This document shows positions 17,755-26,309 of a stretch of DNA of 64,000 nucleotides, in pieces. Location of the stretch: assembly GCF_037996825.1 (NCBI RefSeq), contig NZ_JBBNAC010000001.1:2790001-2854000 (forward strand). The letters run 5' to 3'. The notes beneath the pieces were generated by a model. That model worked only from the letters and a program-made list of their open reading frames with translations. It did no database searches and was not told the origin of the DNA. A program made the translations under genes and the position numbers. This DNA is from Bdellovibrio sp. BCCA. GTDB taxonomy: Bacteria; Bdellovibrionota; Bdellovibrionia; Bdellovibrionales; Bdellovibrionaceae. The stretch's first letter is position 1. Each line of letters begins with the position of its first letter.

Positions 17755-19305
17755 ATGAAAAACTTTTATCAAGACGGCCCAAGCCTATCGAACACGTATC
17801 GTGCAGATGAAACTCTGCAAAAGTTTTTAAAAAAAGTCCTCCCTCCTGAAGCGCAAAAGGAAGCTCTGCCTCACCTCGATCACCTCGGGGAAAGAGCCGT
17901 CACAGACATGCTTCAATGGGCCCAAGAAGCCGAGGCTCAACCACCTCAGCACATTCCTTTTGATCCTTGGGGTCGTCGTATTGACGACATCAAAACTTCT
18001 CACGGTTGGAAGCAGCTTGAAAAAGTCGCCGCTGAAGAAGGCGTCGTGGCCACGGCGTATGAAAGAAAGTTCGGAGCCTTCTCTCGCGTCTATCAAATGG
18101 CTTTGCTTTATTTGTATTCGCCAAGCTCGGCGATTTTTTCTTGTCCTTTAGCAATGACGGACGGCGCGGCCCGCGCTCTGGAAATTTATGCTGGCAATGA
18201 CCTGAAAGAAAGAGCTCTGCCTCACCTTTTATCCAAAGATCCAAAAAACTTTTGGACGGCCGGACAATGGATGACGGAAAGAACTGGCGGCTCTGATGTG
18301 AGCGGCACTTCCACAGACGCTCATCCTTTTAGAGAGACCAGCTTGTTTTCAGCGACACACTCGCTGCACGGAACTAAGTGGTTCACTTCAGCAACAACCT
18401 CACAAATGGCCTTAACGCTGGCTCGTCCCGATGGAGCCCCCGCTGGCTCCAAGGGGCTCAGCCTTTTTTATCTTGAACTCCGCGACAAGCAAGGACAGCT
18501 CAACAATATTCAAATCCATCGACTGAAAGACAAGCTTGGCACTAAAGCCCTGCCGACGGCCGAGTTGAGTCTTCAAGGAACTCCCGCTCGTATGATCGGC
18601 GGCGAAGGTGAAGGAATTAAAAAAATCGCAAGTGTTCTAAACATCACTCGCATCTACAATTCCATCTGCGCGACCGGACACATGCGTCGTGCTTTGGATT
18701 TGGCAACCGACTATTCCAAAAAACGCAAAGCCTTCGGTAAGATTCTCATAGATCATCCTCTGCACCGAGAAACCTTGAAAGCTCTTGAAGAAGACTATCG
18801 CCGCTGTTTTGCATTTTGCATGTTTGTCTCTCACCTTTTAGGACAAGAGGAAGTCGGCGAGATTTCCGCCTCACAAAGAGTTTTATTAAGAACATTGACT
18901 CCGATTCTAAAACTTTATACGGCAAAAAAAGCAATTCAGATTTCCAGCGAAGCAGTCGAGATGTTTGGGGGCGCAGGCTACATCGAAGACACGGGTCTTC
19001 CTCGTTTGCTTCGCGATGCTCAAGTGTTTTCAATTTGGGAAGGCACGACCAATGTGCTTTCTTTAGATATGCTGCGTGCATTTGAAAAAGAACAAGCGCT
19101 GCCTGTCCTTCTTGAATATTTCAAGAATTGTCCGGCAATGAAATCGTCCGTCTCTTCATTTATTGATAAGTGGACAGCACTACAAAAAATCTTAGGACAG
19201 TTGGCGAAAGGCTCTCCTGAAGAATGGGAAGCCAACGCAAGACGTCTGGCGTTTATGGTCGGTGATCTTATGACCGACAACCTCGTTTACGAATATGGGC
19301 TGTAG
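17755..19305 (+). CDS. AidB-like acyl-CoA dehydrogenase
   Basis: A 516-residue flavoprotein of the acyl-CoA dehydrogenase superfamily. The AidB-like branch is suggested by length, by WMTERTGGSDVSGT near residue 175, and by FYLELRDKQG. C-terminal ACAD features include FGGAGYIEDTGLPRLLRDAQ and IWEGTTNVLSLD. AidB proteins bind DNA and FAD and act in the alkylation response, but many relatives oxidise branched acyl-CoA. No fatty-acid or methylation-repair genes lie beside it, so the substrate stays open. It ends at a bidirectional terminator. Confidence 0.85.
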   Translation: MKNFYQDGPSLSNTYRADETLQKFLKKVLPPEAQKEALPHLDHLGERAVTDMLQWAQEAEAQPPQHIPFDPWGRRIDDIKTSHGWKQLEKVAAEEGVVATAYERKFGAFSRVYQMALLYLYSPSSAIFSCPLAMTDGAARALEIYAGNDLKERALPHLLSKDPKNFWTAGQWMTERTGGSDVSGTSTDAHPFRETSLFSATHSLHGTKWFTSATTSQMALTLARPDGAPAGSKGLSLFYLELRDKQGQLNNIQIHRLKDKLGTKALPTAELSLQGTPARMIGGEGEGIKKIASVLNITRIYNSICATGHMRRALDLATDYSKKRKAFGKILIDHPLHRETLKALEEDYRRCFAFCMFVSHLLGQEEVGEISASQRVLLRTLTPILKLYTAKKAIQISSEAVEMFGGAGYIEDTGLPRLLRDAQVFSIWEGTTNVLSLDMLRAFEKEQALPVLLEYFKNCPAMKSSVSSFIDKWTALQKILGQLAKGSPEEWEANARRLAFMVGDLMTDNLVYEYGL

Positions 19306-19392: not shown

Positions 19393-22300
19393 TTAGAAAG
19401 TCACTGGCGTCATATGCGGAACTTTTCCTGCATCGGAGTTACCGATGATCATACCGCGCACTCGTGAGTGACGAGTTGCTGGTTTGAATGGAAGTCCTTT
19501 ATACAACGGACTTTGCATAACTGGCGCCCAACGACCTTTAGAGTCGATTGTCCACTCGCGGAAGTACATTGAAATCGTTGTACCTTCGATCAAGTAATCA
19601 ATAGTCGCACCAGAACCTGCAAGTTTCATGGCTGCTCTGAATGTGAAGAGGTTTTCTGCCATACCTTCACCGAACTGACCATAAGCCGTAGCGAACGCTC
19701 TTGGATCCGAGTTCATTGTTTTGTACATCGTTCTTAGAGCGTAGTACATTTTGCTTGCAGCATTTGCTGTGTCACGGTTGACAGAGTTCACGCAAGGACC
19801 ACCGCGATCCAAGATGCAAAGATCGTATGGATCGTTGCTTGAACGGAAGTAGTCATAAATTTGATCTGTCGACACGTTGATAAACTCATCTTGGCCCATA
19901 CGCTGAGCTGCCATCATCAATCTCATCGTGTTCTCATCACTGAAGTTCACGTTGAATTCGATGCCTGTGTAGCCCAAGTCTCTGTCAGGCACGCTCACCA
20001 TCAAAGTATCCAAACCTGTTTTCTTCACAAGTTCACGAATACCTTTTCTGAGGCGGTCACCGTTACTAGACTCGTGTTTGAATGAGTAGCTGTATGTACC
20101 GAACATGCTGTCCATACGCGCTTTAGTATCCCAGTTTTCAACAGAGTATTTCGCTCCGTAGAACATAAAGTCTTTTTCTTTATGTTTGAACCAGAAACGA
20201 GTGTCCTCTGAATCTGAGAAGATACCGTAGTGCACGCGAGCCGTGTTGCGGTCGATATGCATGTCAGATGTCGTGAAGGAAGCCACACGACCTTTGCTGT
20301 ACGTTTTATCCCAGATGATAGGAATCGCAAGTGACTTGCTGACAACTTTACCCGTAGATACGTTGCGGAAAGTTTCCACTTTCAACACCGGTGCTTTTTC
20401 TACGAAGTTTCTAGGTTTGTTGCTTGCGAAAGTTTCAGACGCAAGAACGTTACCACGAATAAGATCTTCGTAAGCTTTTCTACCTGTCTCCGTCGTCAAG
20501 TCAAACAAGAATGAGAATCCGTCATCGGCGTATTTGAATTCGTTCAATGAAAGATTCAAGATCGCCACTTTCGTGAACATAGAGAAGCTGTCGAGTTTAC
20601 CGCGAGTCATCTTCACGTAAGCTCTGTCAGATCCTACTTTTTCCACGTAAGTTTCCCATGTACCTGTCGCCAATTTTGCAACACCAACGCCTACCGGACC
20701 AATACCTGCTCCAGCAGAGAAGATGATACCACCGTGACCCATGTATGTGATGCTGTCGCCAGTATCCCAGCTGTCAAGGTCAGAGGCCGCTTTAGGAACC
20801 TGCCAACGTCCGCCCATCGCGTAAGCTTTGTCGAGTGTGCTTACGTAACGAGTCGACTCTGTGTCTTTTCCGATGATCGGCAAGACGCCCACGTAAGCCC
20901 AGAAATGATCCAGAACTCCCGTTGCGTTGTCGAACCAGAATCGCACTTGAGCACCCAAACCTACTTCAAGACTTCCGTAAACAGTTTTTTGGAAACCGTC
21001 GCGGTAATCGCCATAGATCAGAGCATCTGAAGACGCCATTGGTTTGTAGTCGTATTTTACGAATGAAGATTTCGGCTCAACGTCTCTGAATTGAGGCGTC
21101 AAGTTCACGATGTAAGAACCGTAGTCGAAGCTTAAGTGGAACAATGGTTTCAACTTAGCTTTAAGTTCGTTCTTTTCTTTTTCTTCAAACTTACCAGTTG
21201 TGCTTGTTTCAGCTGTGGAACCAGTTGAGCTTGTTGAACTTGTAGTTGTTGTTTCACCAGCAGTGGTTGTCTCACCCGCTGTTGTTGTCTCACCCGCTGT
21301 TGTTGTTTCTCCGGCAGTGGTCGTTTCTCCGGCAGTCGTAGTTTCACCGGCTGTGGTAGTTTCGAATCCCGTCGTAAAACCAGTTGTTCCGTGGTTCCCG
21401 TTGTTTCCGTTATTACCATTGTTGCCGTTGTTACCGTTATTCCCGTTATTCCCGTTATTCCCGTTATTTCCGTTGTTTCCGTTGTTTCCGTTATTGCCGT
21501 TATTTCCGTTGTTTCCGTTGTTTCCGTTATTTCCGTTGTTTCCGTTATTGCCGTTATTTCCGTTATTTCCGTTATTTCCGTTATTTCCGTTATTTCCGTT
21601 ATTTCCGTTATTTCCGTTATTGCCGTTATTTCCGTTGTTTCCGTTGTTGCCGTTATTAACGTTGTTGCCGTTATTACCGTTGTTTCCGTTATTGCCGTTA
21701 TTTCCGTTATTTCCGTTATTTCCGTTGTTTCCGTTGTTGCCGTTATTGCCGTTATTAACGTTGTTGCCGTTATTACCGTTATTACCGTTGTTTCCGTTAT
21801 TGCCGTTATTACCGTTGTTGCCGTTATTACCGTTGTTACCGTTATTACCTACAACACCGTTATTTCCAACGATACCACTGGAAGCAGCAACGCCGTTGTT
21901 ACCATTATTGCCATTGTTTCCATTGTTGGCGTTATTTCCATTATTTCCGTTGTTGCCGTTATTTCCATTATTTCCGTTGTTGCCGTTGTTACCTACAACA
22001 CCGTTATTTCCAACGATACCGCTGGAAGCTGCAACACCGTTGTTACCGCTATTGCCATTGTTTCCATTGTTGGCGTTATTTCCATTATTTCCGTTGTTTC
22101 CGTTATTACCTACAACACCGTTATTTCCAACGATACCACTGGAAGCTGCAACACCGTTGTTGCCGTTATTTCCGTTGTTACCTGCATTTCCTAAAACGCC
22201 TGCGCTTCCAAGAATGCCGGAACTTCCAACAACTCCGTTATTTCCATTATCACCGTTGTTGCCATTGTTGCCGTTGTTTCCGTTATTCCCGGTGACACCG

Positions 22301-22725
22301 AGAAGACCGGAACTTCCGACGATACCCGCACTTCCTGCGACACCGCTGTTCCCGTTATTACCATTGTTGCCGTTATTCCCGACAACACCGTTGTTTCCAA
22401 CAATACCGGAGTTTCCGACAACTCCACTGTTGCCGTTATTTCCATTGTTGGCGGCAAAGAATTTCAACTTCGCCCCTGAGCACTGAACCCAAACATTGTT
22501 CATCAAACAGCGACCTTCAGCAGTGTTTTGATCTGAAGGTTTTTGATTAATGAATCCCCCTTGCCCACGAACATCGACGACAGTTCTTGTATTTGAATTT
22601 GCCGCCTGATTATTTGGGTTGATATTTTTCCAAGCCGGGTTCGCTGAAGGATTATTCGCGAGCGCGAAATTTGCCATCAACGTGACTCCGGCCAAGAAAA
22701 CAACCTTTCTTGACTTCCCAGTCAT
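19393..22725 (-). CDS. giant exported Gly-Asn-Asn repeat protein
   Basis: About 1,110 residues from ATG 22725, chosen because AAAGGAG stands 7-8 nt upstream; an in-frame ATG 6 bases earlier is too close and the 22830 start too far. Signal peptide [24 protein letters not shown] region of about 355 residues in Gly-X-Y periodicity, mostly GNN with GVV, GNS, GIV and ASS variants, is followed by GETTTA hexapeptides and a Ser/Thr linker. The C-terminal body of about 570 residues is not recognised; it has aromatic beta-rich stretches ([19 protein letters not shown]). A surface fibre or stalked adhesin is inferred. Confidence 0.85.
21243..21363 (-). repeat. 18-bp tandem repeat encoding ETTTAG
   Basis: Six full 18-bp units plus a partial one inside the Gly-Asn-Asn protein gene, each encoding Glu-Thr-Thr-Thr-Ala-Gly. 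Codons vary between units, so the peptide is more conserved than the DNA. It looks like a Thr-rich linker between the triplet array and the C-terminal body. Confidence 0.9.
21390..22457 (-). repeat. 9-bp tandem array encoding Gly-Asn-Asn triplets
   Basis: About 1.07 kb of in-frame 9-bp units. The part at about 21393-21848 is nearly pure GNN (roughly 50 triplets) broken twice by Val in place of Gly, at about 21657 and 21756. The part above 21848 holds [15 protein letters not shown] blocks repeated three times within longer units of about 120 bp. Unit length in multiples of nine keeps the frame after slippage. A 428-residue open frame on the other strand is a shadow of this array. Confidence 0.93.
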
Positions 22726-23121: not shown

Positions 23122-23742
23122 GTGTTTAAATTTCTTAGAACAGACAAATGCCGTCGAATTTTTGGAATTTTCCAAAAGACTATCATTATAATGTTCTTCT
23201 TAGTAAACGTCGGAATCATGATCACCGACGGTTTACCGGATCGAAGTGCTCTTGGAGCAAGATTCATCAAACTCATTTCCCGATATCAGGCCTTTGGAAT
23301 GCTTTATCAACCATGGTCGATGTTTGCTCCAAATCCGATGAACACGAACGCTTTCATTCAGGCAGAACTGCACTTCGAAGATGGTACCGTTGAACAGTGG
23401 CCACTCCCACGCCAAACGCTGATGACAGGAATACGTCGTGTGCTTGTCGGAGACCGCTATCGACTTTTTGGTCAGGAAACTCTTCTGCCAAATCAGAACG
23501 AACTGGCGTGGTTTGATATTTCTAAATACATCACTCGTCAGATCACACTGCGAGAACTTGATGGCCATCATCGCGCTTTGAAACAAATTATTTTCAACCG
23601 CTACTCCAGTGTTGTGCGCCCTCCTCCGGAAGCACCATTAATTCCGCATGGCACACTCAGTACTTACTATAAAGTTGATCCCGTTTTTTATTACGTCCCC
23701 ACAGTCGAGAAGGTGAGATATGAAGCTAAAAACAGCCTTTAA
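23122..23742 (+). CDS. DUF5819-like membrane-anchored protein, cassette 1
   Basis: A 206-residue protein starting at GTG 23122 behind GAGGGGG. One N-terminal membrane anchor (TIIIMFFLVNVGIMITDGLP) is followed by a soluble domain. WSMFAPNPMNTNAFIQ and YFHFEDGT-like strands recall DUF5819, a family found beside HTTM genes in actinobacteria. It overlaps the HTTM gene by 23 nt, so the pair is likely translated together. A diverged copy is encoded at 25617-26198. Function unknown. Confidence 0.7.
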   Translation: MFKFLRTDKCRRIFGIFQKTIIIMFFLVNVGIMITDGLPDRSALGARFIKLISRYQAFGMLYQPWSMFAPNPMNTNAFIQAELHFEDGTVEQWPLPRQTLMTGIRRVLVGDRYRLFGQETLLPNQNELAWFDISKYITRQITLRELDGHHRALKQIIFNRYSSVVRPPPEAPLIPHGTLSTYYKVDPVFYYVPTVEKVRYEAKNSL

Positions 23743-24658
23743 AGCATTTCATGATTTTTTATTCGCACCACAGCCCGTTTACAGCGTCGCTCTGTTACGC
23801 ATTGGAATGGGCTTCCTTATGATCTTCAATTGGATGATGATTTATTGTGATCTCGATACTCTTTATGGACCGGAAGGTATTGTCTCTCTTACGACAGCTC
23901 AGCAATACGGAAACCAACTGCGCTTTTCTTTATTCGACTATTTACCAAATACGTCAAAAACCGTGATGGTACTGGCTGCGGTTAATCTCATCGCTGTTTT
24001 AGCCATGACAGTGGGAGCATGGACACGCACGGCGATCTTTGTAGCTTTCGTCACCATGGTTTCCTTTCATCATCGCAATGGATTTATTCTCAACAGCGCG
24101 GACTCTGTCTTGCGCGTCTTTTTATTCTTTCTAATTTTTACTCACTGCGGAGATTATTTCTCGGTCGACTACTGGAGAAAACGCACGAAAGGCCTTGTCG
24201 GCGCTATTCCGCCTGAGAAAAGCCCTTGGGCCCTGCGGTTAATCCAAATTCAGTTCTGCGTGATTTATATCGCAACGGTGATGTTTAAAATTAAAGGCGA
24301 TCGTTGGGTGGATGGCACAGCCGTTTATATAGCCACTCGCCTCGATGAGTTTGTCCGTTTCGAGTTGCCTTTGTTGAACAGTCTTCTTTTCATCAAACTT
24401 CTCACCTGGTCCACGCTGGTCGTTGAACTTGCTCTTGGAACTCTGGTTTGGTTTAAAGAGTTGCGCTATTGGGTGCTGTTAGCCGGCATCGGACTTCACC
24501 TCGGCATCGAATATACGATGAGCATTCCCGTCTTCGAATGGGCGATGATCGTGATGATGATCGCAATGATAGATTCCAGAGACATCCAACACTGGATGCA
24601 ACTCCTTCGCGAAAAAAGACTGCGCGCCACAATTCCAAACTTAATCGCCGGGAAATAA
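23720..24658 (+). CDS. HTTM-domain membrane protein, cassette 1
   Basis: A 312-residue polytopic protein matching HTTM, the membrane module related to vitamin-K-dependent gamma-carboxylase. Visible features are RIGMGFLMIFNWM, LYGPEGIVSL, SFHHRNGFILNSADSVLR, and a C-terminal part with ALGTLVWFKELRYWVLL and GIEYTMSIPVFEW. Six to eight helices are likely. The soluble C-terminal domain of true carboxylases is missing. Whether it modifies or moves the partner encoded upstream is unknown. A terminator follows at 24673. Confidence 0.82.
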   Translation: MKLKTAFKAFHDFLFAPQPVYSVALLRIGMGFLMIFNWMMIYCDLDTLYGPEGIVSLTTAQQYGNQLRFSLFDYLPNTSKTVMVLAAVNLIAVLAMTVGAWTRTAIFVAFVTMVSFHHRNGFILNSADSVLRVFLFFLIFTHCGDYFSVDYWRKRTKGLVGAIPPEKSPWALRLIQIQFCVIYIATVMFKIKGDRWVDGTAVYIATRLDEFVRFELPLLNSLLFIKLLTWSTLVVELALGTLVWFKELRYWVLLAGIGLHLGIEYTMSIPVFEWAMIVMMIAMIDSRDIQHWMQLLREKRLRATIPNLIAGK

Positions 24659-24672
24659 TGCTTTCCCAATAA

Positions 24673-24699
24673 AAAAGCCCCGCGATCTGCGGGGCTTTT
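24673..24699. terminator. bidirectional terminator between the two HTTM cassettes
   Basis: Stem AAAAGCCCCGC / GCGGGGCTTTT with a 5-nt loop and T-runs on both strands. It is the centre of the inverted pair of paralogous cassettes. Confidence 0.93.
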
Positions 24700-24709
24700 C
24701 ACCATCAAC

Positions 24710-25639
24710 TTATACCGTAGCTTCCTTAAGTCTTTCCTGACGGAATATTTTAACTTTATTTATCAGAACTTCGATATCTCGTGAATCAACCATACAAATC
24801 ATCGCAACAATCATAATCCACTCAAACAGCGGAATACTCATCGTGTATTCGATTCCCAGGTGCAACGCCACGCCAGCCAACAGCACCCAATAGCGAAGCT
24901 CCCTGATCCACACGAGCGTTCCCAAAGAAAACTCAATCACCAAGGTCGACCAGGTCAAAAATTTAATCACCATAAGACTGTTTAAAAGATCCAAAGGCAC
25001 TCGCACAAATTCATCCAGGCGAGTGGCTATATACACGGCTGTTCCGTCGGCCCAGGAAGGGCCTTTCATCTTAAACATCACCGTCGCAAGATAAATTATT
25101 GAAAACTGAATCTGCATCAAGCGTAAAGCCCAAGGACTTCTCTCCTTGGGGGCTCCTTGCACAAGACCTCGTGCCGTCGCCATCCAGCGATCCAAAGAAA
25201 ACGCTTCACCTGAAGGAGAAAAGAAAAGCAGAAACAGAAAGTTTCGTACCACCATGTCGGAACTGTTTAAAATGAAGATGTTTCGATTATGAAATGACAG
25301 CAAGGTAAAGAATGTCAAAAACAACGATGCGCGAGTAAAAAAACCCAAAGTCATACCAATAACGCCAATAAGATGTAAGACCGCCATCAGTGCCGGCACA
25401 CGCGGATCGTTCGGCAGAAACTCAAAAAGATTAAAGCGCATGGCTCCTGAATACTTCACAGCCGTATCCAGACTCAGAATGCCATTCACCCCCCAAAATA
25501 AATCCAGGTTTTTCCAAATGCTCAACCAGTTCAGAAGCAAAATAAAACCGAAGGCGATGCGAAGCAAAGCCACGCTGTGAACCGGTTGCGGTAGAAAGAA
25601 AAAATCATCAAGAGATTTAGTGATCGTTCTTAGCTTCAT
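24710..25639 (-). CDS. HTTM-domain membrane protein, cassette 2
   Basis: A 309-residue paralogue of the protein at 23720-24658. It shares the starting pattern (MKLRTITKSLDDFFFLPQPV versus MKLKTAFKAFHDFLFAPQPV), SFHNRNIFILNSSDMVVR, and the near-identical block GTAVYIATRLDEFVR. It is transcribed toward its relative, with a common terminator. Its start overlaps the end of the DUF5819-like gene by the same 23 nt. The duplication is old enough that many residues differ. Confidence 0.82.
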   Translation of the reverse strand: MKLRTITKSLDDFFFLPQPVHSVALLRIAFGFILLLNWLSIWKNLDLFWGVNGILSLDTAVKYSGAMRFNLFEFLPNDPRVPALMAVLHLIGVIGMTLGFFTRASLFLTFFTLLSFHNRNIFILNSSDMVVRNFLFLLFFSPSGEAFSLDRWMATARGLVQGAPKERSPWALRLMQIQFSIIYLATVMFKMKGPSWADGTAVYIATRLDEFVRVPLDLLNSLMVIKFLTWSTLVIEFSLGTLVWIRELRYWVLLAGVALHLGIEYTMSIPLFEWIMIVAMICMVDSRDIEVLINKVKIFRQERLKEATV

Positions 25640-26198
25640 GTCTTACCTGCTCTGTAGGTTTGTATTGAAAAACAGATTCCGTTTGATAATTTGTGCTCAG
25701 CTTTCCATGTTCAATGAACTGCTCCGTTGGAGGTTTCACTGTATTGAAGTGACGGTAAAACTGCGCCTGCTCAAACACGCGACCGCGGCCGGAGCGTTCA
25801 ATTCTGTTCACTTCTTTTTCAAGAAAATGCCCAAGATCAAGCCAGATTTCATTTCGTTCCATCGCCTTTAAATTTTCTTGCTGATATTTTCGAAACCGCT
25901 CTCCACCGGTGAAACGATCCCAGTCACTCAGTTGAGACGAACGCGGAAAAGTCCATTTCTCTGTGGAGCCATCTTTAAACGTGATTGTCGCATCCAAATA
26001 CGAGTTCACCGACGAAGGATTCGGAGCAAACATACTCCATGTCTGGTCCAAGCCAAAAAACACCTGATAATCGCGCAGGTGATTTAAAATTCTTTGTCCT
26101 ACCACGCTTCGATCTGGCAGTCCGCTCGTCACCATCATCGTGATGTGAGCAGCAATGAAAATCGATACAAGAGTCTTCACTAGAATTCTCATACGCAC
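25617..26198 (-). CDS. DUF5819-like membrane-anchored protein, cassette 2
   Basis: About 193 residues from GTG 26198 (VRMRILVKT), which has AGGAAAGCGA in front at good spacing; ATG 26192 is the alternative. The anchor ISIFIAAHITMMVTSGLP-like segment is followed by QTWSMFAPNPSSVNSY and FKDGSTEKW, the same framework as the paralogue at 23122. The end EAKNDH corresponds to EAKNSL there, and both stops lie inside the next gene. Confidence 0.7.
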   Translation of the reverse strand: MRMRILVKTLVSIFIAAHITMMVTSGLPDRSVVGQRILNHLRDYQVFFGLDQTWSMFAPNPSSVNSYLDATITFKDGSTEKWTFPRSSQLSDWDRFTGGERFRKYQQENLKAMERNEIWLDLGHFLEKEVNRIERSGRGRVFEQAQFYRHFNTVKPPTEQFIEHGKLSTNYQTESVFQYKPTEQVRHEAKNDH

Positions 26199-26309
26199 TC
26201 GCTTTCCTGTTATTAAACAGCTTGAGAATCTACTGAGTGCTCCGAAATCGGGCAATGCCATTCACTCTAAAACGGATTAAATAAAACGAAGATAGATTTC
26301 GGATTTTTA

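What the first reader, a model, noticed from the sequence alone, without database searches (positions are those of the whole stretch)
21390..22457. Very long Gly-Asn-Asn triplet array in an exported protein
About 1 kb of 9-bp units encodes a collagen-like Gly-X-Y period, but with Asn in both X and Y and no Pro. Two Val-for-Gly breaks and three larger blocks show how it grew. Such an array may form a fibre of unknown fold at the cell surface, and its length may vary between strains by slippage without losing frame.
Basis: partly seen in the sequence, partly recalled or inferred. Interest (0 to 1): 0.68.

Follow-up and report, generated by a model that had tools for sequence, protein, structure and literature searches.

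The report
Gly-Asn-Asn stalk on exported Bdellovibrio protein
A secreted protein of a Bdellovibrio-type predatory bacterium carries about 118 collagen-like three-residue repeats, mostly Gly-Asn-Asn, as a long stalk on a conserved, unnamed domain; relatives keep the domain but swap the stalk for quite different repeats, so the swappable stalk matters more than the Gly-Asn-Asn array alone.

Summary
The array is real. It lies on the minus strand (window 21388-22449) in a 1110-aa gene (19393-22725): signal peptide, short N-terminal region, 118 triplets (111 with Gly in register, 80 exactly GNN, no Pro), six TTTAGE linker repeats, then a ~580-aa C-terminal domain. In the last 51 units DNA spelling varies almost only synonymously (pN/pS 0.02), so the protein sequence is held by selection. 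The C-terminal domain matches nothing in Pfam, NCBIfam or PDB, yet occurs in 85 of 369 Bdellovibrionota genomes. Orthologues at the same locus keep it (57-81% identity) but carry different stalks: GNN, charged GDK/GER collagen-like, GVA/GTH, period 4 or 5, or none. One pair with 98% identical domains has unrelated stalk sequences. In more distant relatives the same domain follows Pentapeptide_2, Ser/Gly or Pro/Thr repeats. Best reading: an exported stalk-plus-domain protein whose stalk length and chemistry change fast; collagen-like triple helix likely for charged stalks, uncertain for GNN (Asn is a poor helix former), flexible spacer the main rival. Surface display and strain-level variation are not shown. 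New variant of a known kind (bacterial collagen-like proteins), with an undescribed domain family.

The parts
19393..22725 (-). whole gene, 1110 aa, exported repeat protein
   Evidence: AAAGGAG site 7 nt upstream of ATG 22725 read
22657..22725 (-). signal peptide [23 protein letters not shown] (predicted by reading)
   Evidence: similar leader in orthologues
22480..22509 (-). C-x8-C motif ([10 protein letters not shown]) before the array, also seen in orthologues G018, G013, G008, G020
21388..22449 (-). Gly-X-Y array, 118 triplets, 80 of them GNN
22102..22155 (-). block [18 protein letters not shown], copy 1
21985..22038 (-). block [18 protein letters not shown], copy 2
21841..21894 (-). block [18 protein letters not shown], copy 3
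21391..21849 (-). near-perfect GNN tract, 51 units (48 GNN, 2 VNN, 1 GNH); pN/pS 0.022
21181..21387 (-). Thr-rich linker with six TTTAGE repeats (18-bp period at 21244-21363)
19396..21180 (-). conserved C-terminal domain, 595 aa, no named family; two invariant Cys
17755..19305 (+). acyl-CoA dehydrogenase (AidB-like), conserved neighbour
23122..24658 (+). DUF5819-like and HTTM genes, conserved divergent neighbours
24710..26261 (-). second DUF5819-like/HTTM pair

Best explanation
The gene makes an exported stalk-plus-domain protein. The Gly-X-Y array is an extended stalk, most likely a collagen-like trimeric rod (roughly 100 nm if it is a collagen-type triple helix at 0.286 nm per residue, own knowledge). 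A Thr-rich linker joins it to a conserved ~580-aa domain that does the specific work (binding or anchoring). Shown: gene structure, the leader sequence by reading, selection on the repeat's amino acids, a conserved domain and an exchangeable stalk. Inferred: location in the outer envelope or on the surface, trimerisation into a rod, and a role in contact with prey or other cells. The stalk grows and shrinks by block duplication, and its chemistry is replaced often, so reach and surface character can change without touching the domain.
For: Long Gly-X-Y runs are kept in 13 of the 17 loci analysed (one of them assembled with a gap) while X/Y changes from NN to KD/ER to VA/TH; unbroken runs of 22-112 triplets against at most 10 in shuffles. 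PF01391 matches at 3.8e-48. pN/pS is 0.022 among 51 units. Conserved neighbours (acyl-CoA dehydrogenase, HTTM pair) show that most loci are orthologous. Species G002 has a C-terminal domain 98% identical to G006/G023 but a charged GXY stalk instead of GNN, and the tree needs at least 8 changes of stalk class. Two invariant Cys in the domain, also in distant members, fit an exported, disulphide-bearing domain. The charged stalks of four species carry 15-25 KGD/KGE pairs; ion pairs are known to stabilise bacterial collagens (PMC4565658).
Against: Asn is a weak triple-helix former: an additive estimate gives about 21 C for GNN against 43 C for GER (parameters recalled from memory). Some orthologues have period 4 or 5 repeats or no stalk, so a triple helix is not needed by the domain. 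AlphaFold gave no structure for the stalk alone (pLDDT 29) and a poor model of the domain (pLDDT 44). Surface location is untested.
Confidence: 0.5

Rival explanations
1. The array is a flexible, unfolded hydrophilic spacer (entropic bristle). Only bulk, solubility and Gly/Asn content matter; the triplet period is a by-product of tandem duplication of 9-bp units.
For: Stalks of other periods (4, 5, 8, 12) and Pro/Thr or Ser/Gly stalks sit in the same position. In viral contigs GNN arrays of about 6-15 units appear as short linkers in unrelated proteins, one of them like a filamentous-phage minor coat protein. The low helix propensity of Asn.
Against: Gly is kept in register over up to 112 triplets while X/Y changes; Asn itself is strongly held in the GNN tract, which a generic spacer would not need.
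Confidence: 0.3
2. The array folds as another Gly-rich structure, such as a polyglycine-II type bundle or an Asn-ladder fold, rather than a collagen triple helix.
For: A GXX period is compatible with polyglycine-II packing (own knowledge); Asn in X and Y is selected, suggesting that the side chains pair.
Against: No structural model supports it; charged GER/GDK stalks of orthologues look like ordinary collagen-like sequence.
Confidence: 0.1
3. The array is neutral slippage junk tolerated next to the domain.
For: Orthologue G004 lacks a stalk; stalks change quickly.
Against: Synonymous sites are near saturation (pS 0.72) while amino acids hardly change (pN 0.016); almost every Bdellovibrio orthologue has a long stalk.
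Confidence: 0.05

Closest known systems
Bacterial collagen-like proteins (PF01391), especially Burkholderia Bucl proteins (PMC4565658) and Scl/Lcl adhesins
   Same: Gly-X-Y region of one dominant triplet type next to conserved non-collagenous regions, repeat number differing between loci, almost no Pro (as in Bucl), export signal
   Different: GNN is not among the Bucl triplet types listed (GAN, GAS, GTS and others); 118 triplets against at most 63 in Bucl; the C-terminal domain is unrelated to those described; no LPXTG anchor; the stalk is replaced wholesale between orthologues
Bdellovibrio MAT fibre proteins (PMC10769870)
   Same: long exported protein of the same genus with a C-terminal domain
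   Different: MATs are beta-helical trimers with S74 or other tips; no such family matched here, and that paper does not mention collagen
Pentapeptide_2 repeat proteins (PF01469)
   Same: Asn/Gly-rich tandem repeats; in relatives L127 and L131 such repeats sit in front of the same C-terminal domain
   Different: this window's protein has a period of 3, not 5, and hits Collagen only

Membership tests
Bacterial collagen-like protein (PF01391) | long uninterrupted Gly-X-Y register | tested here: met
   33-triplet longest run, 111 of 118 Gly in register
Bacterial collagen-like protein (PF01391) | match to the Collagen model above the curated cut-off | tested here: met
   161.5 bits against 27.2
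Bacterial collagen-like protein (PF01391) | flanking non-collagenous domain | tested here: met
   conserved 595-aa C-terminal part
Bacterial collagen-like protein (PF01391) | Pro-rich or charged X/Y stabilising the helix (usual, not universal: most Bucl proteins lack Pro) | tested here: not met
   no Pro, no KGD/KGE pairs in the window array; charged pairs only in some orthologues
Bacterial collagen-like protein (PF01391) | forms a triple helix | not testable with these tools
   needs circular dichroism or protease assay; monomer AlphaFold uninformative
Scl/SclB/Lcl adhesin equivalogs (NCBIfam) | score above the curated cut-off | tested here: not met
   198.9 of 325, 142.4 of 400 and 130.6 of 500 bits
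Bdellovibrio MAT fibre | phage-fibre or S74-type domains | tested here: not met
   no convincing Pfam match in the C-terminal domain of any of 28 members
Pentapeptide_2 (PF01469) | five-residue repeat model match | tested here: not met
   window protein hits Collagen only; relatives L127 and L131 hit PF01469

The most novel reading that the evidence does not exclude
A phylum-wide, undescribed exported domain of Bdellovibrionota serves as a common base onto which lineages attach different repeat stalks (collagen-like GNN, charged collagen-like, Pentapeptide_2, Pro/Thr, Ser/Gly), giving predators a modular, fast-changing envelope or surface structure; the GNN form would be a proline-free, charge-free triple helix or a new Asn-based fold.
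Probability: 0.4. Interest if true: 0.72.

Novelty: new variant of a known kind. Interest (0 to 1): 0.52.

Why it matters
If right, one conserved domain has been combined repeatedly with structurally different stalks, which allows a direct test of what a stalk must provide (length, stiffness, chemistry). A 118-triplet, mostly Gly-Asn-Asn tract is also a sharp test of whether a collagen helix can form without proline, hydroxyproline or charge pairs. The C-terminal domain is a candidate unnamed family in predatory bacteria and their relatives.

Tried and rejected
Structure of the C-terminal domain: AlphaFold on the five sequences allowed gave pLDDT 44 and Foldseek gave no significant hit, so no fold is claimed. 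AlphaFold on the stalk alone: no structure. PDB sequence search: none. Phage origin: no viral relatives of the domain, no PHROG. Paralogues in the own genome: none. The antisense 428-aa frame at 21200-22486 (+) is a mechanical by-product of the array, not a gene. The gene split at the array in kdesi (G016) and G007: in kdesi the break joins a multicopy element found at 95-100% identity, often twice, in most relatives (probably an rRNA operon), so a misassembly is likelier than a real rearrangement. Papers on Bdellovibrio collagen-like proteins: none found.

Full report
Observation. The window holds, on the minus strand, one gene of 1110 codons (19393-22725). It has a typical Sec leader ([23 protein letters not shown]), a short N-terminal region with a C-x8-C motif, the array (residues 93-446), a Thr-rich linker with six TTTAGE repeats and a 595-residue C-terminal part. 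The array has 118 triplets, 111 with Gly in register; of 117 full triplets 80 are GNN in 11 DNA spellings. TRF, shuffles and the Pfam Collagen model all place it far beyond chance.

Selection and growth. In the last 51 units synonymous differences are near saturation (pS 0.72) while non-synonymous ones are rare (pN 0.016; ratio 0.022). Both Gly and Asn are therefore held at protein level. Adjacent identical units are only slightly above shuffles (13 of 63 against 9.0 +/- 2.6), so one-unit slippage is not the main recent process, although one run of seven identical units exists; the 117- and 144-bp periods show block duplication.

Relatives. The C-terminal part has no Pfam, NCBIfam, PHROG or PDB relative. 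It is present in 20 of 23 other species of the genus (57-81% identity in the main copy; only a more distant copy in one), in 32 of 144 genomes of the class and in 85 of 369 of the phylum, 34 genera. The loci with organism names are Bdellovibrio and relatives; genome G006 has exactly the length of B. bacteriovorus HD100 (own knowledge), so it is probably that strain. In most species the gene keeps its neighbours, an acyl-CoA dehydrogenase on one side and DUF5819-like/HTTM pairs and a mannose-phosphate guanylyltransferase/isomerase on the other.

Stalk exchange. Across 17 loci: GNN stalks in G000, G001, G019, G023, G006, G018, G020 (also in G016, G009, G007, whose assemblies break in the array); charged GXY stalks in G002, G012, G022, G021, G011; GVA/GTH in G013; period 5 (DTGHH) in G008, period 4 in G005, short Gly/Asp-rich in G014, none in G004. 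Pro is 0-3%. On a tree of the domain the stalk classes need at least 8 changes; many deep branches of that tree are unresolved, so the count is rough. G002 differs from G006 and G023 by only 2% in the domain (92% DNA identity) yet has GDKGNYGNNGDHG in place of GNN. Farther away the same domain follows Pentapeptide_2 repeats up to 1218 aa (PF01469, 3e-149), Asn/Ser/Asp Gly-X-Y repeats (PF01391, 5e-22), Ser/Gly, TGGGD and Pro/Thr repeats, or no repeat. Within the class, GNN arrays of six or more units were found only in the genus Bdellovibrio; the positions listed lie in this gene or its split pieces. Short GNN linkers occur in six viral contigs in unrelated proteins.

Mechanism. The constant element is export plus the C-terminal domain; the stalk is exchangeable. 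The retained Gly register with changing X/Y favours a collagen-like rod in the Gly-X-Y species, most convincingly for the charged ones. For GNN the recalled host-guest values predict a weak helix (about 21 C), so a flexible spacer is a serious rival. Burkholderia Bucl proteins show that Pro-poor collagen-like regions dominated by one or two triplets, with conserved flanks and variable length, are a known kind (PMC4565658). Surface display and function are inferred, not shown.

Limits. One genome per species is held, so strain variation is untested. Draft assemblies break in the array (gap in G001, contig end in G009, probable misjoin in G016), so array lengths there are unsafe. Leader and linker are read by eye. 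The domain model is too poor for a fold.

Noticed in passing
23122-26261: Two inverted DUF5819-like/HTTM gene pairs lie beside the gene and at least one pair is kept beside it in most Bdellovibrio species; no such pair is near the gene in G004, which also lacks the stalk.
   Followed up: partly
L109 (G016:C1:3336000-3343978), L047, L110, L052: In kdesi and G007 the gene is split at the array into two distant pieces; in kdesi one junction runs into a multicopy, highly conserved element, so assembly error is likely.
   Followed up: partly
L126, L127, L128, L131: Relatives in another family of the phylum carry 430-1218-residue Asn/Gly pentapeptide stalks (PF01469 confirmed for L127 and L131) in front of the same domain.
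   Followed up: partly
L063, L064: A second paralogue family (about 950-980 aa) has a different N-terminal part ending in Thr/Glu/Arg-rich repeats (TREETRTETHNEERTG) just before the domain.
   Followed up: no
L125 6013-6120 (-): A 9-kb viral contig encodes a filamentous-phage minor-coat-like protein with about 14 GNN units as a linker.
   Followed up: no
21200-22486 (+): A 428-aa antisense open frame rich in Pro/Leu/Phe exists only because of the repeat; no evidence that it is a gene.
   Followed up: no
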